Assembly: GCA_015272395.1 (NCBI GenBank) | Contig: JACYLQ010000026.1 | Coordinates: 62,001-126,000 of the forward strand | Length of the DNA: 64,000 nt | Source: Calothrix sp. C42_A2020_038 | Lineage (GTDB): Bacteria; Cyanobacteriota; Cyanobacteriia; Cyanobacteriales; Nostocaceae | Direction: 5' to 3' | Shown: in pieces, positions 2,678-17,147 of the stretch | Numbering within the stretch: position 1 is the stretch's first letter | How the letters are laid out: every line of letters begins with the position of its first letter | The notes under the pieces: model-generated | The model's input: the letters and a program-made list of their open reading frames with translations, nothing else | Told to the model about the DNA's origin: nothing | Database searches by the model: none | Made by a program: the position numbers and the translations under genes

Positions 2678-3249
2678 AGAAGTTTACGCAATTTTACTAA
2701 TTACAAAAAATGTGAACTCTAGTTGAAATTTTTCAGTTTGAATTTTTATGGCGCCCTTAAAAAAGTAGGTATATCGAAAACTTGCAGTTGAATCTGAATT
2801 AATCAAATTTGATTTTGAAAGCCTTAATTTCATGCAATCCAAAGAAGCCAAGTTTTGAAGGCTTGACCATAGCTAAAGCTTCGAGAAGCAATTATCCTAG
2901 GAGCGCTGAAAAGGTGCAAAAAAGAAATCTACAAGTTGTTCTCGCCTAGAGTCGCGCTTAATTAAAGTAAATCATCTCAGTAGTCAAAATTTTAAGCTAG
3001 AAATTACTTAATTTGATTTAAATTAATTTTAAAGACAATGCAGTTAATAACTGTATAATTGTAAACTTATCAAGATACTCAGTTTTTACAGTCTGTGAGC
3101 CTTAAGTCTCTTTTTGCAAAACTAGGCAAAAAAGCTTTACTCAAGTGGTAATTTTTTTGAGGAATTACCAATTGGTTGTGATACAAACTCAAAATTATTG
3201 GGAATAATATCTATACACATTTAGGCGATAGGCATAGGTAGCGTTGTTT

Positions 3250-6200
3250 ATGATGGGTGCCAGTATAAATCTTCCCGGTTATCAAATTGGCGAGCAAATC
3301 TACTTAGGCTCGAGGACGCTTGTCTGCCGGGCACTGCGACAATCCGATCAAAAATCAGTGATTGTCAAGCTGATGCGGAATGAATATCCGAGCTTTAGCG
3401 AACTGGCCCAGTTTCGTAACCAATATATAATTAGTAAAAACCTTAACATTGATGGAATAGTTCATCCTTTAGAATTATTGACACAAAATCATATTTATGC
3501 ATTAGTAATGGAAGATTTTGGTGGAATTTCACTTGATGAGTATTTTCATGATTCCAATGGCAAATCACTTGATGCTTTTTTTGATGTTGCGATACAGATA
3601 GTAACAGCACTATTGTTACTACACCGCGAACGTATCATCCACAAAGATATTAAACCAGCGAACATCTTAATTAATCCCGACACCAAACAAGTTAAGTTAA
3701 TCGACTTTAGCATTGCATCACTATTACCTAAAGAAACGCAACAACTCAGAAACCCAAATACTCTGGAGGGAACGCTTGCATATATATCTCCAGAACAAAC
3801 TGGAAGAATGAATCGTGGTGTTGATTACCGTACTGATTTTTACTCATTAGGTGTAACATTTTATAAATTACTTACGCAACAATTACCTTTTACCACCACT
3901 GACCCTATAGAGTTGGTGCATTGTCATATTGCCAAACAGCCTACAAGCATTGTAAATCTCAACCCAGATATACCTCAAGCACTTTCAGATATTGTCTCAA
4001 AATTGATGGCAAAAAACGCTGAGGAGCGATATCAAAGTGCAGTAGGGTTAAAATACGACCTTGAGCAATGCTATTCAGAGTGGCGAAACTTTGCTGGAAA
4101 AGTTTCATCGTTTCCATTAGGACAACGGGATATTTCTGAATCCTTTATCATTTCAGAAAAGCTGTACGGTCGCGAAGCTGAGGTTGCCAAACTACTTGCA
4201 GCATTTAAACGTGTTACTACTGGTCAATCCGAACTCATACTTGTTAAGGGAGTTTCCGGAATTGGTAAAACTGCTGTTATTAATGAAGTTCATAAACCGA
4301 TTGTTGGAGCGCGCGGTTATTTTATTAAAGGAAAGTACGACCAATTTCAGCGTCAAACACCATTTTCGGGATTTGTCCAAGCGTTGCGTGATTTAATTAC
4401 GCAGTTGCTAAGTGAAGATAATTCTCAACTCCAGTATTGGAAAAATAATATTTTGCAAGCATTGGGAGAAAATGCTCAAGTTATTATTGATGTTATACCC
4501 GAACTTGAAGCAATTATTGGGCGCCAACCTCCTGTAACTGTACTTGAAGGTAATACAGCTCAAAATCGCTTTAATTTATTGTTTCAAAATTTTATTAGAG
4601 TATTTGCAACATCTACACATCCATTAGTAATTTTTCTAGATGATTTGCAGTGGGCTGATTTAGAATCGCTGAAGTTAATACAATTACTAATGAGCCAAGG
4701 AAATGCTGGTTACATGCTATTAATTGGTGCTTACCGCGATAACGAAGTTAGCTCAACCCATCCATTAGCTTTAACTTTAAACAAAATTCATAAACTTGGT
4801 TCCACTGTTAACCAAATATCACTCACACCACTTAAACAAGATGATTTAAATTACTTAATTGCAGATACACTCAACTGCTCCCCTGAATTAGTACTAACAC
4901 TTACAGAATTAGTATATGCAAAAACTAGTGGTAACCCGTTTTTCTGTACACAGTTTTTGAAAGCTTTATATGAAGAAAAATTAATTTATTTTAATTTTGA
5001 TAAACGTTGTTGGGAATGTGAGATTTCAAAGGTCAAAGAACAGTCAACAACGGATGATATTATAGAATTAATGACTCAGCAGTTAAAAAAACTACCATCC
5101 GAAACACAGAATGCTCTAAAACTTGCAGCTTGTATAAGTAATCAATTTGATTTAAAGACTTTGGCGATAGTTTTACAAAAATCGCTGCCTGAAACAGCAA
5201 TGCATTTATGGAAAGCTTTACAAGAAGGATTTATATTACCGACAAATGAAACATATAAATTTTTCCCATTGTCAAATGAACAAAGCGATATTCAGGGATT
5301 AAACATTCTCAAAAAAGCAGAAATGTTCAGAATTGAATATAAATTTTTGCATGACAGAGTTCAACAAGCTGCTTATGGATTAATACCAAATGATCAAAAG
5401 CAAATCACACATTTAAAAATTGGTAAGCTTTTGCTTGAAAAAATTCCAAACAATCAACATGAGGAAAGAATATTTGATATTGTTAATCACTTGAATACTG
5501 GTATTGGCTTAATTACAACATTAGAAGAACGTCAAGAACTTGCGCAGTTAAATTTATTAGCTGCAAAAAAAGCTAAACAATCAACAGCATATGTAGTTGC
5601 ACAAGAATATCTAGAAAAAGGAGTTAATTTACTTGGTTCAGAGTGCTGGAATCTATATGATTTAGCTTTGCAATTGCATAGAGAAAAGGCAGAAATTGAA
5701 TACTTAAATGGCAACTTTGAAGCATGTGAATCTTTAATCAATAGAGTTTTACCAAAACTGAGAACAAATCTAGAGAAAACAGAGTTTTATAATATTTTAG
5801 TTGTTCAATATACGTTACAAGCAAAGTATGAGGAAAGCATAAAAGTCGGGATATATGCACTGAAATTATTGAACATTAATTTACCACAAGAAAATCTAGA
5901 AATAGAATTTAGAAAAGAATATGCACAAGTAAGTAAATTATTAGAAATATGGAGCATTGATAATTTATTACATTTACCATTAATGCAGTCGCAGGAAAAT
6001 ATAATGGCTGCAAAATTATTAATGAGTTTAGACCCAGTAACATATATTGGAATGCCAGAACTATACCCAATTGTCTCATTGGAACTCATCAAATTATCGC
6101 TCAAGTATGGAAATACGGCCGAATCTGCAAAAGGTTACTCAAATTATGGAGTTATTCTAAGTTCATTTTTTCAGAAATATGAATCAGCATATGAATTTGG

Positions 6201-8688
6201 TAAACTGGCAATGAATCTTAGCGATAAGTTAAATCATCCAGTTTTAAAATGTCGAACTTACTTTATCTTTGCAAGTTTTATTAGTAACTGGTATCAACAT
6301 ATTAAATTAGCAACTCATTTCAATGATGAGGCATATAAGTTTGGATTAGAAGCTGGTGAGTTACAGTTCTCTGGCTATATTTTGTTTGGTAAAGTAATTA
6401 ACGACTTTAGCCAAGGAATTAACTTAGATGATATTTTGTCTAATCTACCTATATTCATTGAGTTTCTTCAAAAAACTCAAAATCAAGCAATGATTGAAGC
6501 ATTAACAGCTTATGAAATAGTACTTCACAATTTATCTGGAATAACAGTATCTATCGAAGAATTTGCTAGTAATAAAATTACGGAAAATGAATATATATAT
6601 CAATGTCAATTACATCAAAGCTTTATTGCTATTGTTTTATACCAAATTTTAAAAATACAAGTACTATATATTTACGGTAAATTTGATGAAGCTTACGATT
6701 ATGTGATCAAAGCACAACCTCACCTTTCTTATGTAACTGGATTTTTCTTAATTGCAACATATAATTTTTATGACTCGCTTATATTAGTTATTAAATATAA
6801 TAATTCCACTCACATTGAAGAAAAAAGTCAATATTATGAACAATTACAAAAGAATCAAGCGCAGATGAAAATCTGGGCAGATAGCTGTGCAGAAAACTTT
6901 TTACATAAATACTTGCTAGTTGAGGCAGAAATTTTACGAGTAGCTGGTAAAAACTATGAAGCAATGGAGCTATATGATCAGGCAATTGAACAAGCTAAAA
7001 CTCAGGGATTTGTTCAAGAAGAAGCACTTGCTTGTGAGTTGGCAGCTAAGTTTTTCCTAGGTTGGAATAAACCAAAAATTGCACAAATTTATTTAGTTGA
7101 TGCTTATTATGCTTACGCACGTTGGGGCGCCAAAGCTAAAATTAGTCAGCTTGAGATGCAATATCCGCAATTACTTGCCTCGGTTCTAATGCGTCAAGCT
7201 ACTGAAGTCAGGACAACCGAAACTGTATTAATGAAAGCAGCACAAACTATCACTTCCAGTAGTAGCTTGATGACATCAGTGTTCGACTTAGCTACAATTA
7301 TGAAAGCATCGCAGGCAATTTCAGGTGAAATTAATCTAGAGCGTTTACTTACAGTTTTGATGCAAGTTGTCCTGGAAAACGCTGGTGCCAGCAAAAGTGT
7401 ACTAATTTTAGTCAAAAATGAACAAATGTTTCTGGAAGCAGAAGCATTAGTGGCGCCGACAGGGAAAGTCACTTGTACTCTTAATACAAATTTACCTCCT
7501 GTCGATAGTATAGTGCCAATCTCAATACTCAACTATGTCAAGAATTCATCAAAATACTTATTAATCGACGATAGTAGTAAACAAACCAACTGGTTTACCG
7601 ACAAATACATCCAACGTGAACAGCCTCAAAGCATATTATGTTTACCAATCCACCGTCAAGGCGAATTAATTGGATTACTATATTTGGAAAACCGTACTAC
7701 TGCATGTGTATTTACAATCTCGCGCATTGAGTTACTACAACTTATCTGTTCCCAAGCTGCAATATCTATCGAAAATGCTCAACTTTACGCACGGATGCAA
7801 GATTACGCAAAACAGTTAGAAACCTCACTTGAAGACCTTAAACAAATGCAACTTCAACTCGTGCAAAGTGAGAAAATGTCCGCATTAGGCGGTTTAGTTG
7901 CAGGAATAGCTCACGAAATAAATAATCCAATTGGGTGTATAACTGGGAACATTGAACCAGCACAACAGTATGTTAAAAATTTATTAGAAATTATAGACTT
8001 GTACCAAACTGAACATGTAAACCCAAGCAAGCAGCTCCTCAATTACATCAAAACTTTAGACCTAGAATATATCCGTGAGGACTTGCCAAAACTTATAGAA
8101 TCAATGAAACAAAGTATTGACAGAATCTATGATATAAGCATTAGTCTACGCACTTTTTCACGTTCAGATAATCGTAAACCGACTATTTGCAATATTCATG
8201 AGTGTATCGATAGTACTTTGTTAATTCTCAAGCACCGTCTCAAAGCATCACAAACCCGTCCGCAAATTGAGGTCGTGAAAAATTATGGGGAAATACCTGA
8301 ATTTGAGTGTTATCCTGGTCAATTAAATCAGGTATTCATGAATTTACTTGCTAACGCTATTGATGCGTTAGAAGAATCAAGTGCGGAACTTAGTCCTGAG
8401 CAAATTCAAGCTAATCCCAACTGTATTACGATTACAACGCTTATTGCTAAAGATAAACAGTCGGTTTCAATTAGCATCAAAGATAACGGACCTGGAATAC
8501 CTGATGATGTCAAAACCAAGATATTCGACCATTTATTTACAACTAAACCTGTTGGCAAAGGTACAGGACTGGGTTTAGCGATTGCTCGTCAAATTATTGT
8601 CGAAAAACATCAAGGCACAATATACGTAAATTCATCGCCTAATCAAGGCGCCGAATTTGTGATTCAGTTACCATTTAATATTGAGTAA
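3250..8688 (+). CDS. Multidomain Ser/Thr protein kinase - AAA ATPase - GAF - sensor histidine kinase
   Basis: N-terminal kinase motifs (IIHKDIKPANILIN, IDFSIAS), P-loop VKGVSGIGKTAVINE, GAF-like segment, and C-terminal H-box GGLVAGIAHEINNPIG with N/G boxes DNGPGIPDD, GKGTGLGLAIARQI. The ORF track starts at TTG 3244; ATG at 3250 or 3253 is more likely. Confidence 0.93.
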   Translation: MMGASINLPGYQIGEQIYLGSRTLVCRALRQSDQKSVIVKLMRNEYPSFSELAQFRNQYIISKNLNIDGIVHPLELLTQNHIYALVMEDFGGISLDEYFHDSNGKSLDAFFDVAIQIVTALLLLHRERIIHKDIKPANILINPDTKQVKLIDFSIASLLPKETQQLRNPNTLEGTLAYISPEQTGRMNRGVDYRTDFYSLGVTFYKLLTQQLPFTTTDPIELVHCHIAKQPTSIVNLNPDIPQALSDIVSKLMAKNAEERYQSAVGLKYDLEQCYSEWRNFAGKVSSFPLGQRDISESFIISEKLYGREAEVAKLLAAFKRVTTGQSELILVKGVSGIGKTAVINEVHKPIVGARGYFIKGKYDQFQRQTPFSGFVQALRDLITQLLSEDNSQLQYWKNNILQALGENAQVIIDVIPELEAIIGRQPPVTVLEGNTAQNRFNLLFQNFIRVFATSTHPLVIFLDDLQWADLESLKLIQLLMSQGNAGYMLLIGAYRDNEVSSTHPLALTLNKIHKLGSTVNQISLTPLKQDDLNYLIADTLNCSPELVLTLTELVYAKTSGNPFFCTQFLKALYEEKLIYFNFDKRCWECEISKVKEQSTTDDIIELMTQQLKKLPSETQNALKLAACISNQFDLKTLAIVLQKSLPETAMHLWKALQEGFILPTNETYKFFPLSNEQSDIQGLNILKKAEMFRIEYKFLHDRVQQAAYGLIPNDQKQITHLKIGKLLLEKIPNNQHEERIFDIVNHLNTGIGLITTLEERQELAQLNLLAAKKAKQSTAYVVAQEYLEKGVNLLGSECWNLYDLALQLHREKAEIEYLNGNFEACESLINRVLPKLRTNLEKTEFYNILVVQYTLQAKYEESIKVGIYALKLLNINLPQENLEIEFRKEYAQVSKLLEIWSIDNLLHLPLMQSQENIMAAKLLMSLDPVTYIGMPELYPIVSLELIKLSLKYGNTAESAKGYSNYGVILSSFFQKYESAYEFGKLAMNLSDKLNHPVLKCRTYFIFASFISNWYQHIKLATHFNDEAYKFGLEAGELQFSGYILFGKVINDFSQGINLDDILSNLPIFIEFLQKTQNQAMIEALTAYEIVLHNLSGITVSIEEFASNKITENEYIYQCQLHQSFIAIVLYQILKIQVLYIYGKFDEAYDYVIKAQPHLSYVTGFFLIATYNFYDSLILVIKYNNSTHIEEKSQYYEQLQKNQAQMKIWADSCAENFLHKYLLVEAEILRVAGKNYEAMELYDQAIEQAKTQGFVQEEALACELAAKFFLGWNKPKIAQIYLVDAYYAYARWGAKAKISQLEMQYPQLLASVLMRQATEVRTTETVLMKAAQTITSSSSLMTSVFDLATIMKASQAISGEINLERLLTVLMQVVLENAGASKSVLILVKNEQMFLEAEALVAPTGKVTCTLNTNLPPVDSIVPISILNYVKNSSKYLLIDDSSKQTNWFTDKYIQREQPQSILCLPIHRQGELIGLLYLENRTTACVFTISRIELLQLICSQAAISIENAQLYARMQDYAKQLETSLEDLKQMQLQLVQSEKMSALGGLVAGIAHEINNPIGCITGNIEPAQQYVKNLLEIIDLYQTEHVNPSKQLLNYIKTLDLEYIREDLPKLIESMKQSIDRIYDISISLRTFSRSDNRKPTICNIHECIDSTLLILKHRLKASQTRPQIEVVKNYGEIPEFECYPGQLNQVFMNLLANAIDALEESSAELSPEQIQANPNCITITTLIAKDKQSVSISIKDNGPGIPDDVKTKIFDHLFTTKPVGKGTGLGLAIARQIIVEKHQGTIYVNSSPNQGAEFVIQLPFNIE

Positions 8689-9772: not shown

Positions 9773-10393
9773 TTAAATCATCCAGGCTGCTTGAAAAAAT
9801 TCTAATTCACACAACATTGCATAACGATAAGTTGAGTGTACTAAATCATTGTTAGCTGTGTAATTATCAACATATACAGCTAATTTCTGAGAAATTTCAT
9901 CAAACTCATTGCTGCTATATGTCCGAATCCATTCACTATATTGATGTTCAGGAATACCATCGCGCGCTAACTCTTTACCTAAATAATTATATAAACGCAT
10001 ACAAGGTGACATTGCTGCTGCTGTTAACCCAGAATCTCCACTCCAAGCAGTGGCAATCAAAAAGTCAGTGTAGCGTCGAGTTGCAGCACCTGGTTGTATA
10101 GAACGCAAATCTATCCCCCAAGATGACGCATAGCTTTCATGAAGTTGCAGTTCTTGGAGTACACCATCAGCTAAAGCATGAAATGTTTCAAACCCCCCAA
10201 AATCAGGCGCCTTTGCAGCTGCAATACTATATGCACGTGCGAACGCTTCCAAGAAAAATGCATCTTGACCAACATAATAAGCAAATTTGTGTCGTGGTAA
10301 ACTACCATCACCGATACCGCGAACAAAAGAATTGTCTAAACAAGCTTGTGCCAAATCTTGATTGGCTTGCCAAAGAGTGATGGAAATAGACAT
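9773..10393 (-). CDS. tenA: TenA family protein (thiaminase II / thiamin salvage type)
   Basis: 206 aa. FVRGIGDGSLPRHKFAYYVGQDAFFLEAFARAYSIAAAKAPD and C-terminal E-rich helix. Confidence 0.85.
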   Translation of the reverse strand: MSISITLWQANQDLAQACLDNSFVRGIGDGSLPRHKFAYYVGQDAFFLEAFARAYSIAAAKAPDFGGFETFHALADGVLQELQLHESYASSWGIDLRSIQPGAATRRYTDFLIATAWSGDSGLTAAAMSPCMRLYNYLGKELARDGIPEHQYSEWIRTYSSNEFDEISQKLAVYVDNYTANNDLVHSTYRYAMLCELEFFQAAWMI

Positions 10394-10635
10394 TTGGATT
10401 TTGGATTGAGTGATATGGCGTTTTTTAGCCAGTTGAGGTATGGATTACAGCAGTTTTTAGGTTGCGCTCTTGTACATATATTAAAATTAAATTGCTGTGG
10501 AGTGGGCAGAGAGTGCCCGCTCGGCTGTATTTAACCAACCTGAAATTTGCTGTAATTCAGTATATTTCTTGTGGGGTAGGCTCTTTGCTGACTAAATAAA
10601 GAGTCAACTTTGCTACCAGAGTTTTTGTTGGGTAT

Positions 10636-13600
10636 TTAAAATAAACTTTGAATTTCTTGATCAGTGAATGGATTTATACCAGTACGTAGGGTATTAACCC
10701 AACGTTGCCGTTTTAATTTATCTTTCGGATTAGAAGTCCAAGCGATGAAAGCTTGAAAATCTAAGATCGCTCCTTCGGTATTGCCGATTAATGCTCTAGC
10801 AAGACCGCGACTATCTAAAATTTCTGCATCATTGGGAACAAGAGCTACTGCTTTTTCACAAGCATATATTACATCAGCAGGATGTTTATGTAAACTACCA
10901 TACCAACAGAGGTGACTCCAAGAACTTGGAGAAATTTCCAATGAGGGATCGAATTTTTGGGCTTGTGCGTAAGCTGCGATCGCTGCCAAAACTTTGCCAT
11001 TTGCGGCACATTTTTCCCCTTTCCTAATTAAATTTAAAGATACAAACTGACGAGCTTTTGTCTGCGGTTCAAAGCCGAGATTTGCATTTAGTTCCAATGC
11101 GGATTGAAACTTAGCACTCGCAACTTCTAAATCACACTGTTGTCCTGCATCTTCTCCTTCTTTAACCAAGATTAAAGCTTTTGCCTTGGCTGTGGGATTA
11201 AATTTCAACTTAGTAGGATTCCAACTCAGCGCAGTGCGAAACTTCGCAATTCCATCTTCAATATCACCTTTTATAATTAGTTTTTCTCCTTGAGTTACCA
11301 TTGCAGGCGCCGAAGCCGCTCTGATCGCAGGAGTTACACATTGTTCTAATTCATTAAGTGCATCAGGGTGGGTGATGAGATAATCCCCAAACCAGGTACA
11401 CCCACGCATTTGTAAATCATCAAAATCGAAATTCCATAAAATTACCGTTTTGTCATTACTAGCTGTGGCGAGGGTTTTACCATCAAGACTAAATGTAGCA
11501 TTATTGACTGCATCACTATGTCCGGTAAGGGTTTTGAGCAGCTTACCTTCCCGGTTCCATAGTTTGACTGTCTTATCTTCACTAGCTGTAGCCAAAATTT
11601 TATTATCGGGGCTAAAACTGACACTTCGAGTATGATTGCTATGTCCAATCAGGGTTTTGAGAAGTTTGCCTTCCCGGTTCCATAGTTTGACCGTCTTGTC
11701 TTCACTAGTTGTAGCGAGGGTTTGACTGTCGGAGGTAAATGTAGCGCTGTTGACCCAACTGTTATGTCCGGTAAGGGTTTTTAGCAACTGACCCTCCCGG
11801 TTCCACAGTTTAACTGTAGTATCATTACTAGTAGTGGCGAGGATTTGACCATCGGGACTGAATGTAGCGCTATTGAGTTTATCGTTATGTTGGGCGCTGA
11901 AAGTTTTTAGTAACTGACCTTCCCGATTCCACAATTTAACTATATGATCATCACTGGCAGTGGCGAAAGTTTGACCGTCGCGGCTGAATGTAATACTATT
12001 GACCCTATTGTTATGTCCAGTCAGGGTTTTTACCAGTTGACCCTGCCGATTCCACAATTTAACTGTCCTATCATTACTAGTTGTAGCCAGGATTTTACCA
12101 TCAGGGCTGAAAAGAACACTATTGACGTGATCGCTATGTCCAGTTAAGGTTTTTAAAAGTTTGCCCTCCCGTTTCCACAGTTTAGCTGTTTTATCATTAC
12201 CAATTGTGGCGAGGATTTTACCATCAGGGCTAAATGTAACGCGATTGAACCCCTCACTATTTTGGGTGAGGGTGGTAAACAGCTTTTGATCCAATTTCCA
12301 CAGGATTACAGTGTTGTCAGTACTGGAACTAGCAAGGGTTTTGCCATCAGTACTAAATGCAGCACTATGAACTACATCGCTATGGCCAACAAAGGTTTTG
12401 AGAAGCTTACCTTCGCGGTTCCAGAGTTTAACTGTCTTATCATTACTAGCTGTAGCCAGGTTTTTACCATCAGGGCTAAATGTAACGCTATTGACATTAT
12501 CTTCATGTCCAGTGAAGGTTTTGAGAAGCTGACCTTGGCGATTCCAGAGTTTAACTGTCTTGTCATTACTGGCTGTAGCCAGGGTTTTACCATCGTGGCT
12601 AAATGTAACCTTATTAACCTGCTCATTATGGCCAGTGAAGGTTTTGAGCAGCTTACCTTCCCTGTTCCATAGTTTAACTGTCTTGTCATTACTAGCTGTA
12701 GCCAGAGTTTTTGCATCGGGACTGAAACTGACGCCATGCACCTGGTCGCCATGTCCAGTAAAGGTTTTGAGAAACTGACCTTTCCGATTCCAGAGTTTAA
12801 CTGTCTTGTCACTACTCGCTGTAGCCAGGATTTTACCGTCGGGGCTAAATGCAGCGCTATTGACATTATCTTCATGTCCCACAAAAGTTGCGATTAATTT
12901 GCCTTCGCGGTTCCATAGTTTGGCTGTATCGTCATTACTATTAGTCACAATTTGACCGTCAGGACTGAAACTAATGCTATTAATCAGCCTCGCATGTGCA
13001 TCGAAACTTTTTAGCATCTGACCCTTGTGGTTCCACAATTTCACTGTCTGATCATCACTTGCAGTGGCAATAGTTTCACCATCGGGGCTAAATATAACAC
13101 TTCTTATATAACTCTGATGTCCTTGCAAGCTATTAAACTGTTTGACTTCATTTATAACTTGCCCCAATACAACTGTAATGGGAATTTTTAGCTCTATGTT
13201 TTCTCCCTGAATTTGTGTGACTTTTTTCGCTGCCTTGAGAATAGTTTTCAAAGCATCAAATTCTCGTCCTAAAGCCAGAAGTGCTTCTGAGGAGTTCGTG
13301 AGGGATATAATTTCGTTCTTTGCTGAGTTTTGTGATTGCCACCAAGCCACCCCAGTCAAACTCAAGGCTACAACCAAGCCACCAGAGAGTCCGAAGACAG
13401 TAAATTGCCGTCTGCGCTTTTGCTTCCTACTCTCACGCTCCCGAAATTCCACACTCAGTCCAATAAAACTCCTCTCGACCCCACTCAATTCTAAAAAACG
13501 TTGTCTTTCCCAATACTCTGCATCTGCCAATGGTTTTCCTCGCAACAATCCCCCTTCATCAAAACCACTACTCTCCCAAGTACGCATTGCTACACGTAAA

Positions 13601-15972
13601 TGCTCTTGCCAGTGGCGAAAATCCCTATCTTGCTGCATCCACTGATGTAATTGTCCCCAATTACGTATCAAAGCTTCATGGACAACCTCTACCGTATCTA
13701 AACCCGTTTTCTCATCCCGCCCCGTCACCACCAAACGAGAAGATGCCAAGTGAGTGACCAAATCCCAATTTTCATCACCAACCTCAGCACGGGTAGCGAT
13801 GCGACGGGTATCTTCCGTTCCTTCTCCTGGATGCACCAGTTGAATAAAAATTCGCTGTGCCCTTTCTTTTTCCTCGAAATTCAACTTGTTATATGCTTCA
13901 TCCGCATAACCAGCTAATGCTGCTTCCACCCCGCCAATTTCCTTGTAAGCAGCACGGGTTAACTGAGCATCTTGTTGTTTTGCCCATAGTTGAGTTAAGG
14001 CAAACTCTAATAAAGGTAAATTCCCCGGTTCTACACTAATACTGGCAAGGATGCGTTCCACCAGCCCCTGTTCAATTGTTACTCCCAATAACTTCGCAGG
14101 TTTTTCTACTACTGCTTGCAATTCCTCATCCGTCATCGGACCAAGTTTTAAGTCTGCATACTGTAAGGCATCGGCAAAGGGACGATAAGACAATACTTGT
14201 CCGAGAAAATCTGCCCTGAGAGTGATGACGAAGGTGAAATTACGACAATGATAGATAGCTTCGAGTAATCTATCGAGAAAAGTTTGGCGTTCTTGTGGAT
14301 CTGTGCAAAGCGTATAAAGTTCTTCAAATTGGTCAACGATGAGCAAAAAATGCTGGCTTGGGTCAAGTTTTAGGATATCATCTACCACATCCCGCAACCC
14401 ATTGGAATACTGCCCTAGGTCACTGGCAAGGTTTCTGATCTCCCGCAAGCGTTCGGTGTGGCTAAGTAATTGTTTGCGGACTTGGGACTTTTTTTGACCG
14501 GAGGCAGGAAGGCAGAAGGGAAGATGAGGTTTCCCCCTGTTCAGAGCTAATAGCTCCCCACCTTCTGAGCAATCATCTGTACTAAAACAATATTCTTGCT
14601 GATCAATCAGGGCAGTTGCCAGATTAAACAAGGGTCTGGAACCGGGACGAAAGTCAACAATATGCCAATTTCCTGCATTTCGCAGACGCTTGACCAAACC
14701 TGCAAACACCACACTGGACTTACCACTACCACTAGAACCAATCACCGCTACCAAGGGTTGATTTTGCACTGCATCCACCAACATATTGGTGAAAGTTTCC
14801 CGTCCAAAAAAAAACTGTGCATCTTCTTCGCGAAAGGCGAATAAACCACGATAGGGAATAATATCGGTGGGACGGCGACCCAAGTCTAACCAATTGGGTG
14901 GAGTGGCATCGGTATTTTGACAAATTACTGGCAACCAGGAAGCGCAGGGATATTTATCCTCTAGTCCATGCAACTTTAATCTAGCTTCCTTAACTGCTTG
15001 ATATAAGGACTTACTACTCGACGCAAAATCTGACAAAAAATGCTTTAAAAATACCTGTGCTACTTCATCTGGTACTTGTTCGCGCATGACAATAATTTGG
15101 GGGATGTGTAGCGCTTCTAAATCAGACGCTAATCCCAAACCATCACAGGAATTGAAAATTGCTACACCTAAGCCATTGCTCTTCGCTTTTTTCAAGCCAT
15201 ATTTGAGGTCATCCGTAGTTAAGCTTTCTTTGTTTTCGTTGATATATATGTGACCGCTATCTCCTACTGTTTGGCTATGACCTGCAAAAAACAGGATATC
15301 CCAATGTTTTCCCCATAATTGGTCGTTGATTTCATAACGTTGGGGCTGTACTAAAAATGTGACATCAGCATCCGGTAAACTGTTGAGCAACCTGCGGTCT
15401 GTTTCCACATCAATGCCAGTACTGTTGCCCAAAATCGCCAAAATTTTGACTTTATTTCTAATACTTGGGGTTTTGGTTGCGGGTGTTTTTTGATAATCGG
15501 TTGTACTTAAAGCTAGTTCGGCATGGGGATATTCTTCCACTAAATCCCAAAGATGCCAAGGTATTTGTCGTAACTGCTGATTAGATGTGCGAATTAGTAT
15601 CCTTACTATTTCATTTTCTTGTAATTCCTTTAACCAACTTTCTCGGATGGGGCGAAAAGGTTCCTTTTGCAGCCAGTTATTCAGTCGTTTTTGTAACTCA
15701 GTCGCTAAATTTTTACAGTCTGACTGTTTCTCAGTAATAGAACCATTATAAGTGACTTTTTTAGCTTTAAGAGCGCGATTAGGACTACCTAAACTTCGAT
15801 AGTGCGATTGCCACTGGTCAATTGTTGTCTGCAATTCTGTAGCTGCTGGTAAAAAACCAGTGACTTCTTTATGAGGACTAACACCTTCAAAAGCGATTGA
15901 AAGCGTTACCCTTACACCCTGTTGTAAATCGCCATCCAATTTTAAGACAACTAATTTTGTCATTGGTTCCAA
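10636..15972 (-). CDS. CHAT protease-like domain - nSTAND ATPase - TM - 14 WD40 repeats - TPR-like C-terminus
   Basis: CHAT His/Cys motifs FFAGHSQTVG and IFNSCDGLG. Walker A GSSGSGKSSVVFAG, Walker B FLLIVDQFEELYTL. TM segment FTVFGLSGGLVVALSLTGVAWW, WD40 units of about 41 aa, C-terminal TPR-like helices. Confidence 0.92.
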   Translation of the reverse strand: MEPMTKLVVLKLDGDLQQGVRVTLSIAFEGVSPHKEVTGFLPAATELQTTIDQWQSHYRSLGSPNRALKAKKVTYNGSITEKQSDCKNLATELQKRLNNWLQKEPFRPIRESWLKELQENEIVRILIRTSNQQLRQIPWHLWDLVEEYPHAELALSTTDYQKTPATKTPSIRNKVKILAILGNSTGIDVETDRRLLNSLPDADVTFLVQPQRYEINDQLWGKHWDILFFAGHSQTVGDSGHIYINENKESLTTDDLKYGLKKAKSNGLGVAIFNSCDGLGLASDLEALHIPQIIVMREQVPDEVAQVFLKHFLSDFASSSKSLYQAVKEARLKLHGLEDKYPCASWLPVICQNTDATPPNWLDLGRRPTDIIPYRGLFAFREEDAQFFFGRETFTNMLVDAVQNQPLVAVIGSSGSGKSSVVFAGLVKRLRNAGNWHIVDFRPGSRPLFNLATALIDQQEYCFSTDDCSEGGELLALNRGKPHLPFCLPASGQKKSQVRKQLLSHTERLREIRNLASDLGQYSNGLRDVVDDILKLDPSQHFLLIVDQFEELYTLCTDPQERQTFLDRLLEAIYHCRNFTFVITLRADFLGQVLSYRPFADALQYADLKLGPMTDEELQAVVEKPAKLLGVTIEQGLVERILASISVEPGNLPLLEFALTQLWAKQQDAQLTRAAYKEIGGVEAALAGYADEAYNKLNFEEKERAQRIFIQLVHPGEGTEDTRRIATRAEVGDENWDLVTHLASSRLVVTGRDEKTGLDTVEVVHEALIRNWGQLHQWMQQDRDFRHWQEHLRVAMRTWESSGFDEGGLLRGKPLADAEYWERQRFLELSGVERSFIGLSVEFRERESRKQKRRRQFTVFGLSGGLVVALSLTGVAWWQSQNSAKNEIISLTNSSEALLALGREFDALKTILKAAKKVTQIQGENIELKIPITVVLGQVINEVKQFNSLQGHQSYIRSVIFSPDGETIATASDDQTVKLWNHKGQMLKSFDAHARLINSISFSPDGQIVTNSNDDTAKLWNREGKLIATFVGHEDNVNSAAFSPDGKILATASSDKTVKLWNRKGQFLKTFTGHGDQVHGVSFSPDAKTLATASNDKTVKLWNREGKLLKTFTGHNEQVNKVTFSHDGKTLATASNDKTVKLWNRQGQLLKTFTGHEDNVNSVTFSPDGKNLATASNDKTVKLWNREGKLLKTFVGHSDVVHSAAFSTDGKTLASSSTDNTVILWKLDQKLFTTLTQNSEGFNRVTFSPDGKILATIGNDKTAKLWKREGKLLKTLTGHSDHVNSVLFSPDGKILATTSNDRTVKLWNRQGQLVKTLTGHNNRVNSITFSRDGQTFATASDDHIVKLWNREGQLLKTFSAQHNDKLNSATFSPDGQILATTSNDTTVKLWNREGQLLKTLTGHNSWVNSATFTSDSQTLATTSEDKTVKLWNREGKLLKTLIGHSNHTRSVSFSPDNKILATASEDKTVKLWNREGKLLKTLTGHSDAVNNATFSLDGKTLATASNDKTVILWNFDFDDLQMRGCTWFGDYLITHPDALNELEQCVTPAIRAASAPAMVTQGEKLIIKGDIEDGIAKFRTALSWNPTKLKFNPTAKAKALILVKEGEDAGQQCDLEVASAKFQSALELNANLGFEPQTKARQFVSLNLIRKGEKCAANGKVLAAIAAYAQAQKFDPSLEISPSSWSHLCWYGSLHKHPADVIYACEKAVALVPNDAEILDSRGLARALIGNTEGAILDFQAFIAWTSNPKDKLKRQRWVNTLRTGINPFTDQEIQSLF
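11400..13145 (-). repeat. Array of 14 WD40-encoding units (about 123 bp each) inside the CHAT-nSTAND gene
   Basis: Reiterated FSPDGKxLATASNDKTVKLWNREGKLLKTxTGHS counted by eye in the translation. DNA units are highly similar. Confidence 0.88.
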
Positions 15973-16287
15973 AAAAATGAGCGCTTCTATTTCAATAACA
16001 CTTTCCCTCGGAAATTTTACGCAAAAATTAAACTTGAATTTAATCTATCGCTTTCATTGATTTCAGGTTATATGATTGGTTTGTGTCATAATTAATATTT
16101 ATATACAATGCTTTTGTCTAGCAAATCGTTTCAAAACTTCATAGCAACCAAATTAAATTCTGACTAAAAAATTCCACTTTTTATAAAAGATTTATGGTAT
16201 GACAAGCCTGTATATAGTATCCTTAATTGTTTTGTATCAAGTTAATTTCTTGGGCACTAGTGGTATTTAGTAATTTAAACTATCCTA

Positions 16288-16310
16288 GAGACGCGATTGA
16301 ATCGCGTCTC
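16288..16310. repeat. Perfect palindromic hairpin GAGACGCGATT-g-AATCGCGTCTC
   Basis: Exact inverted repeat. A related half (ATCGCGTCTCTAC) occurs near 26137. Confidence 0.7.
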
Positions 16311-16376
16311 TACCGACTTATTTACGTGAAATAGTGGGCGTTACCTCTATTCGCGAGGCATGATTTTAGGAAAGGT

Positions 16377-17147
16377 TTAAAACGGTAAAAACTGAAGTAG
16401 GATGGATGCGACTCCGCTCACAAAGTCCATAAAGTTGGGTTTACCTGCACTAATCTTAGTATCCTGGGGTGTTTTTAGCTCGATGATGAAAGCTTGTGCA
16501 GTTTGGGCGCCGTTGAGATTGTTTTGAGTTTTAAACATTTTTTCTGCAATTTGTGCGTCTTGAAAAGCGCCTTGACGGTCAAATAGCTGATAACGAGCAA
16601 TGCCACGTGCTAAAAATGCTCCTGCAAAATCGGGTTTAACGCTAATCGCTTGATTAAAATAATCAATAGCTTGCTGGAGATTACCTTTTTCGGCAGCAGC
16701 AACTCCTAAACCATAAAATTCGTCCGGTGTCGCTATTTGTGAAGGAATGCCTGTTGCACCTTGTAAATTCGCACTATTAAATGTGACGTTTGTCAACTCT
16801 ACGTTGTAAAGGTACGCATTTCTCAAGTCTGTACCCGCAATTGTCGCACCACCTAATCTTGCACTGTTGAGGTTGGCGCCGAACAAACTGGCGCTCGTCA
16901 AGTTTGCACCCCGCAAATCCGCACCTGTTAAATTCGCACGGCTAAGATTGGCAAGTGCTAGGTTCGCACCACTCAAATCGGCACCAGATAAATCAGCCAT
17001 GACTAATCCGGCGCCACTAAGATCACAGTTTTGACATTTTTTAGTGGCAAGTAACTGTCTGATGTGTTCGGGATTTGCTGCTTGAACTACCGTTGTAAAG
17101 CAAATGCTTGTTACAAATATAACTGTTGCTAGAATCTGATTTTTCAT
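16377..17147 (-). CDS. Secreted pentapeptide-repeat protein with TPR-like C-terminal part
   Basis: Signal peptide MKNQILATVIFVTSICFTTVVQA, A(D/N)LSxA repeats, then GNLQQAIDYFNQAISVKPDFAGAFLARGIARY. Confidence 0.88.
   Translation of the reverse strand: MKNQILATVIFVTSICFTTVVQAANPEHIRQLLATKKCQNCDLSGAGLVMADLSGADLSGANLALANLSRANLTGADLRGANLTSASLFGANLNSARLGGATIAGTDLRNAYLYNVELTNVTFNSANLQGATGIPSQIATPDEFYGLGVAAAEKGNLQQAIDYFNQAISVKPDFAGAFLARGIARYQLFDRQGAFQDAQIAEKMFKTQNNLNGAQTAQAFIIELKTPQDTKISAGKPNFMDFVSGVASILLQFLPF

What the first reader, a model, noticed from the sequence alone, without database searches (positions are those of the whole stretch)
10636..15972. CHAT-nSTAND-TM-WD40(14)-TPR protein: candidate signal-activated protease
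The CHAT dyad motifs (AGHS around 15275-15285, NSCDG around 15140-15156 in DNA coordinates), Walker A (about 14709-14745) and Walker B are all intact. The C-terminal sensor half has 14 WD40 units, which would make two complete 7-blade propellers. CHAT proteases coupled to STAND ATPases and repeat sensors match the architecture of known defence/programmed-death effectors, but this particular combination has no assigned target.
Basis: partly seen in the sequence, partly recalled or inferred. Interest (0 to 1): 0.68.

Follow-up and report, generated by a model that had tools for sequence, protein, structure and literature searches.

The report
Membrane-anchored, STAND-gated CHAT protease
A cyanobacterial gene encodes a caspase-like protease joined through an ATP-driven switch and a membrane anchor to two propeller-shaped sensors; its relatives usually travel with a sigma factor and a partner protein (DUF1822), which suggests a cut-to-activate gene switch rather than simply a suicide enzyme.

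Summary
Window 10636-15963 (-) encodes a 1775-aa CHAT-nSTAND1-TM-WD40(14)-TPR protein. The His/Cys dyad is invariant in 38 aligned homologues. AlphaFold2 gives a CHAT fold close to separase and Csx29. The architecture is widespread in Nostocales and belongs to the published EACC2-caspase class (Kaur et al. 2021), so the type is not new.

New here: (1) The closest CHAT relatives sit in sigma-DUF1822-CHAT operons, and one relative fuses DUF1822 to CHAT-nSTAND1. (2) The window gene has lost its operon. In two congeners its flanks are 68 bp apart. A cognate sigma-DUF1822 pair survives on contig C24; its history mirrors this CHAT (r=0.90) and no other tested CHAT of the genome. (3) The TM is conserved with a positive N-flank, so the propellers are probably outside the cytoplasm. 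(4) The propeller turned over while the protease-switch half stayed 82-86% identical.

Best explanation: a membrane receptor whose CHAT cuts DUF1822 and frees a sigma factor, as Csx29 cuts Csx30 in Craspase. The cleavage step is inferred, not shown. Score moderate.

The parts
10636..15963 (-). CHAT-nSTAND1-TM-WD40(14)-TPR gene (1775 aa from ATG 15963; TTG at 15972 also possible)
15619..15963 (-). N-terminal alpha+beta domain (residues 1-115) preceding CHAT, shared with CHAT-CHASE2 proteins; probably the EACC2 domain of Kaur et al. 2021
   Evidence: AF2 secondary structure; alignments reach residue 1 in CHAT-CHASE2 relatives; the identification as EACC2 is inference
14935..15678 (-). CHAT caspase-like protease domain (residues 96-343)
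   Evidence: PF12770 46 bits; AF2 pLDDT 86.8 and Foldseek to separase/Csx29/caspases
15277..15279 (-). predicted catalytic His229 (AGHS)
   Evidence: invariant in 38 sequences
15145..15147 (-). predicted catalytic Cys273 (NSCDG)
   Evidence: invariant in 38 sequences
13558..14856 (-). nSTAND1 NTPase domain
   Evidence: PF20703 E 4e-120
14713..14739 (-). Walker A GSSGSGKSS
   Evidence: conserved in full-length relatives
14314..14340 (-). Walker B-like IVDQFEELY
   Evidence: conserved in full-length relatives
14498..14592 (-). variable in-frame loop of nSTAND1, about 26 codons longer than in NIES-3974
   Evidence: no DNA match in any relative; single copy in own genome
13348..13404 (-). predicted transmembrane helix (residues 854-872), N-flank +5, C-flank 0
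11404..13128 (-). 14 WD40 blades, predicted two seven-bladed propellers
10636..11403 (-). C-terminal tail with TPR repeats (lineage-specific)
10407..16375 (.). segment absent from the same site in two congeners (inserted here); flanks are TENA (9773-10393) and pentapeptide (16377-17147)

Best explanation
This is a single-pass membrane receptor protease. The nSTAND1 NTPase and CHAT protease face the cytoplasm; the WD40 propellers and TPR tail lie outside. Ligand binding to the propellers lets nSTAND1 exchange nucleotide and oligomerise in the membrane, bringing CHAT domains together and activating them. The most likely substrate is a DUF1822 protein that holds an ECF-like sigma factor; cutting it frees the sigma factor and changes transcription. 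In this genome the gene has left its ancestral operon, so it would act in trans on the sigma-DUF1822 pair at contig C24:373874-375504. Shown by sequence: architecture, intact motifs, predicted CHAT fold, operon in relatives, gene relocation, cognate pair. Inferred: topology, oligomerisation, cleavage of DUF1822, sigma release.
For: CHAT fold and invariant dyad. Order sigma-DUF1822-CHAT: 26 of 30 DUF1822 loci have this CHAT directly downstream and about 19 a sigma upstream; at least 38 of 55 DUF1822 hits in 80 family genomes. Natural fusion CHAT-nSTAND1-DUF1822 in Oscillatoria PCC 10802. CHAT and DUF1822 trees mirror each other, r=0.949, 0 of 2000 permutations; the own C24 DUF1822 mirrors the window CHAT (r=0.90) and none of six other own CHATs (r<=0.01). 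In congener G030 the sigma-DUF1822 pair and CHAT-nSTAND lie in one locus whose downstream LysM and AraC genes are, in the own genome, beside the C24 pair. Empty insertion site in two congeners. DUF1822 is predicted as two domains joined by a disordered linker, like Csx30, which Csx29 cleaves to relieve sigma inhibition (PMC10028731). TM with positive N-flank in nearly all relatives, also when the N-terminal effector is a kinase, cyclase, HTH or BTAD domain, i.e. cytoplasmic. Nearest CHAT relatives carry CHASE2, an extracytoplasmic sensor.
Against: No proteolysis, sigma binding or topology has been measured. Only 8 of 43 listed nSTAND-type CHAT genes have a listed DUF1822 gene directly upstream, so many may act otherwise. 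DUF1822 is not homologous to Csx30 by any search made here. Operon mates share history anyway, so tree mirroring alone does not prove contact. The sigma factors match Pfam sigma models only weakly (20-22 bits, below cut-off). Kaur et al. proposed autoproteolysis instead. The hydrophobic helix could be a peripheral anchor.
Confidence: 0.48

Rival explanations
1. Abortive-infection or programmed-death protease: the propellers sense an invader or damage, and CHAT cleaves many proteins or a death substrate and kills the cell.
For: NLR-like effector-NTPase-repeat layout; the same nSTAND1-TM-WD40 chassis carries C14 caspase, trypsin, kinase and cyclase effectors; the propeller turned over between close orthologues (WD40 46% against CHAT 86%), as in immune receptors; WRAP relatives have been linked to innate immunity (PMC9218822).
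Against: No specific PADLOC match; window neighbours are housekeeping genes; no defence island seen; the operon partner of relatives is a sigma factor.
Confidence: 0.25
2. Autoproteolysis: CHAT cuts its own chain to release the cytoplasmic or sensor part, as Kaur et al. propose for EACC2 systems; DUF1822 and sigma act downstream.
For: Published proposal for this class (PMC8195603).
Against: Does not by itself explain the tight DUF1822-CHAT co-evolution or the fusion; the variable nSTAND1 loop is not conserved as a cleavage site.
Confidence: 0.15
3. Regulator of, or immunity to, lanthipeptide production: in this clade the module controls a lanthipeptide cluster or processes its precursor.
For: LanM synthetase plus precursor-like peptide and MFS exporter or papain-type peptidase lie beside CHAT-nSTAND in four clade members, with two LanM types 46% identical.
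Against: No LanM found in the own genome (no positive control rang); absent beside other clade members.
Confidence: 0.07

Closest known systems
EACC2-caspase systems (Kaur, Iyer, Burroughs, Aravind, eLife 2021, PMC8195603)
   Same: Constant N-terminal alpha+beta domain then caspase-superfamily domain, variable C-terminus (CHASE2, STAND and others), neighbours ECF sigma factor and DUF1822
   Different: Window gene stands alone after moving; nSTAND1-TM-14-blade sensor and TPR tail; the paper proposes autoproteolysis and gives no test
Craspase/CASP: Csx29 (TPR-CHAT) - Csx30 - CASP-sigma (PMC10028731)
   Same: CHAT fold (Foldseek 8eey_B E 1.6e-10); three-part set of CHAT protease, two-domain linker protein and ECF-like sigma
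   Different: Gated by STAND/WD40 rather than guide RNA; DUF1822 is not detectably related to Csx30; membrane-anchored
WRAP, Npun_R6612 of Nostoc punctiforme (PDB 2ymu; PMC6805158, PMC9218822)
   Same: STAND ATPase followed by 14 WD40 blades forming two seven-bladed propellers
   Different: No CHAT domain described for WRAP; it is coupled to a TIR(/caspase)-STAND gene; WRAP blades are near identical, these are 60% identical
Apaf-1 and NLR-like STAND proteins (Avs, bNACHT)
   Same: Effector/adaptor - STAND NTPase - repeat sensor order; double WD40 propeller in Apaf-1
   Different: The well-studied ones are cytosolic (own knowledge); here a conserved TM lies between switch and sensor, and the protease is in the same chain
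HetF (cyanobacterial CHAT protein)
   Same: Weak CHAT-region similarity (40.9 bits)
   Different: Far below the family cut-off of 1200; different architecture

Membership tests
EACC2-caspase system | Caspase-superfamily (CHAT) domain preceded by a constant alpha+beta domain | tested here: inconclusive
   CHAT met; an N-terminal alpha+beta domain is present and shared with CHAT-CHASE2; no EACC2 profile was available for a direct comparison
EACC2-caspase system | Variable C-terminus, including CHASE2 or STAND | tested here: met
EACC2-caspase system | Neighbouring ECF sigma and DUF1822 genes in relatives (majority feature) | tested here: met
EACC2-caspase system | Sigma and DUF1822 adjacent to the window gene itself | tested here: not met
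   absent from the window; cognate pair on contig C24. Not a strict requirement of the class
Craspase/CASP | Csx30 homologue as substrate | tested here: not met
   DUF1822 profile and model do not match Csx30 structures
Craspase/CASP | Partner Cas7-11 with guide RNA | not tested
   no CRISPR search was made
WRAP-type STAND protein | STAND domain plus 14-blade double WD40 propeller | tested here: met
WRAP-type STAND protein | Operon with a TIR-STAND gene | tested here: not met
   window neighbours
HetF | NCBIfam NF045509 score above cut-off | tested here: not met
   40.9 bits against 1200
Functional CHAT protease | His-Cys dyad in a caspase-like fold | tested here: met
   invariant H229/C273; fold matches; dyad distance not measured, no coordinates available
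Functional CHAT protease | Proteolytic activity | not testable with these tools
   needs biochemistry

The most novel reading that the evidence does not exclude
Cyanobacterial CHAT receptors (nSTAND1-TM-WD40 and CHASE2 types) are transmembrane, non-CRISPR analogues of Craspase: they sense outside the cytoplasmic membrane and cut DUF1822, an unrecognised anti-sigma factor, to release a dedicated sigma factor. The window protein does this in trans after leaving its operon.
Probability: 0.4. Interest if true: 0.78.

Novelty: new member of a known kind. Interest (0 to 1): 0.52.

Why it matters
It turns a 'CHAT protease without a target' into a concrete test with three named genes in one genome. 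If right, regulated proteolysis of a DUF1822 anti-sigma would be a common outside-to-inside signalling route in multicellular cyanobacteria (CHAT/nSTAND1 relatives in 71 of 80 and DUF1822 in 64 of 80 sampled family genomes), and the Csx29-Csx30-sigma arrangement would be one instance of a wider protease-inhibitor-sigma theme.

Tried and rejected
Classical anti-phage system: no specific PADLOC hit; the HEAT-ARM_XIII match covers WD40 repeats only. HetF orthologue: score far below cut-off. PDB sequence match for the CHAT part alone: none, so a fold comparison was used. Very recent blade amplification as in WRAP: rejected, blades are 60% identical at protein and 68% at DNA level, with 58% identical codons where residues agree. 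nSTAND1 loop as a dispersed repeat: single copy in the genome. Transposase or clear terminal inverted repeats at the insertion: none found. DUF1822 as a Csx30 relative: no support. The own CHAT-CHASE2 gene at C8 as cognate of the C24 DUF1822: rejected by tree comparison (L016, r=-0.21). The genome may be incomplete (50 contigs).

Full report
1. Observation. The ORF at 10636-15972 (-) is real and uninterrupted. An ATG at codon 4 (15963) is the likelier start; numbering below is from that Met. CHAT (46 bits, cut-off 24), nSTAND1 (E 4e-120), one hydrophobic helix (854-872), 14 WD40 blades and a TPR tail are all present.

2. Protease. Across 38 homologous CHAT sequences, G228-H229 and N271, C273, D274 are invariant. 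AlphaFold2 on that alignment gives mean pLDDT 86.8 and pTM 0.88, with H229 and C273 just after two strands (223-227 and 267-271), as expected for the caspase fold. The nearest solved folds are separase (E 2.5e-11), Csx29 (E 1.6e-10, TM 0.60), SAVED-CHAT, gingipain and caspases. The dyad distance was not measured because no coordinates were available. The fold and residues fit an active CHAT protease; activity is not shown.

3. Switch, membrane and sensor. Walker A and B are conserved in relatives. A hydrophobic helix between nSTAND1 and the first blade is found in nearly all relatives that reach it, with net charge +1 to +7 before it and mostly -1 to +2 after it. The same holds for most nSTAND1 proteins whose N-terminal domain is trypsin, kinase, cyclase, BTAD, HTH or C14 caspase; DNA-binding, cyclase and kinase domains are cytoplasmic, which supports N-in and propellers outside. 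Cysteine is half as frequent on the C-side (0.52 against 1.00 per 100 aa). The topology remains inference. Fourteen blades is the commonest number, though NIES-3974 has 13. The best PDB match is 2ymu, described as two seven-bladed propellers (PMC9218822).

4. The sensor turns over. Against Scytonematopsis (L047) the CHAT domain is 86% and nSTAND1 82% identical, but the WD40 region only 46%, below the 56-60% identity among the window's own blades, and blades do not match by position. Against NIES-3974 the blades do match by position, with one blade missing there. So the propeller was re-amplified or replaced on one of these lineages while the protease-switch half was kept.

5. Neighbours. Next to relatives, a DUF1822 gene and an ECF-like sigma gene recur directly upstream. 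In 30 DUF1822 loci from family genomes, 26 have this CHAT subfamily directly downstream and about 19 a sigma gene upstream; the four without CHAT are all in the window's clade, in genomes that carry the CHAT-nSTAND gene elsewhere. From the printed tables, at least 38 of 55 DUF1822 hits have CHAT within 500 bp; of listed nSTAND-type CHAT genes 8 of 43 have DUF1822 directly upstream, of CHASE2-type 28 of 39 (tables were truncated, so these are lower bounds). One relative is a fusion, CHAT-nSTAND1-HEAT-DUF1822. Kaur et al. 2021 already reported the EACC2-caspase/ECF sigma/DUF1822 association and proposed autoproteolysis.

6. The window gene moved. In congeners G030 and G076 the TENA and pentapeptide genes that flank it here are 68 bp apart; DNA similarity stops at 10406-10410 and resumes at 16376. 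In G030 the CHAT-nSTAND gene lies in the sigma-DUF1822 locus, followed by LysM and AraC genes; in the own genome the homologues of those genes lie beside an orphan sigma-DUF1822 pair on contig C24. In NIES-3974 the pair is 10.8 kb upstream on the same strand. The CHAT and DUF1822 trees agree (r=0.949; 0 of 2000 permutations), and the C24 DUF1822 mirrors only the window CHAT among seven own CHATs (r=0.90 against <=0.01). That the C24 pair is the cognate partner is therefore well supported.

7. Mechanism. Craspase provides the model: Csx29 cuts Csx30, a two-domain protein with a linker that inhibits an ECF sigma factor (PMC10028731). DUF1822 is also predicted as two domains with a disordered linker (pLDDT 71.7), without detectable homology to Csx30. 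I infer that the CHAT receptor cuts DUF1822 and frees sigma. This is the leading hypothesis, about even odds. Death/defence and autoproteolysis remain open.

8. Lanthipeptide link. In four clade members a LanM synthetase with precursor-like peptide and exporter or peptidase lies beside CHAT-nSTAND, twice between it and sigma-DUF1822. The two LanM types are 46% identical, suggesting separate arrivals. No LanM was detected in the own genome (no control rang).

9. Novelty. The class is known; this is a new member with a relocated gene, a probable trans partner, conserved membrane anchoring and a turned-over propeller. The testable substrate proposal is the main value.

Noticed in passing
window 10407-16375; L182, L183: The window gene sits in a segment of about 6 kb absent from the same TENA/pentapeptide junction in two congeners; two intergenic repeats (10472-10555 and 16286-16379), both also found on contig C24 (L137), border it; no transposase.
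   Followed up: yes
L137:7872-9505 (own contig C24:373874-375504): Orphan sigma-DUF1822 pair, 81% and 76% identical to the pair upstream of a CHAT-nSTAND orthologue; probable partner of the window protein.
   Followed up: yes
L175:4211-9552; L174:7635-14419; L047:7689-13082; L051:483-5820: Lanthipeptide clusters (precursor-like peptide, LanM, MFS exporter or papain-type peptidase) next to CHAT-nSTAND genes, of two LanM types.
   Followed up: partly
L058:9965-13144: Natural fusion CHAT-nSTAND1-HEAT-DUF1822 without TM or WD40 (Oscillatoria PCC 10802).
   Followed up: partly
L040:4995-10010: Own-genome paralogue C14 caspase-nSTAND1-TM-WD40(14): the same chassis with another protease.
   Followed up: partly
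own genome (L001-L024): 24 CHAT matches in one 6.5-Mb genome, several CHAT-CHASE2, one CHAT-FHA.
   Followed up: partly
window 14498-14592: In-frame loop of nSTAND1, about 26 codons longer than in NIES-3974, with no DNA match in any relative.
   Followed up: partly
L084:10001-14442; L049:9653-14204: Two relatives have the CHAT-nSTAND-WD40 reading frame split in two, as reported for WRAP-type genes.
   Followed up: no
L177:11758-12629: A second, shortened sigma-DUF1822 pair close to the intact operon in G018.
   Followed up: no
window 3244-8688 (+): 1814-aa Ser/Thr kinase-AAA_16-GAF-histidine kinase hybrid near the finding.
   Followed up: no
L060: Contig labelled Epsilonproteobacteria MAG carries this cyanobacterial-type gene with a DUF1822 end upstream; possibly mis-binned.
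   Followed up: no
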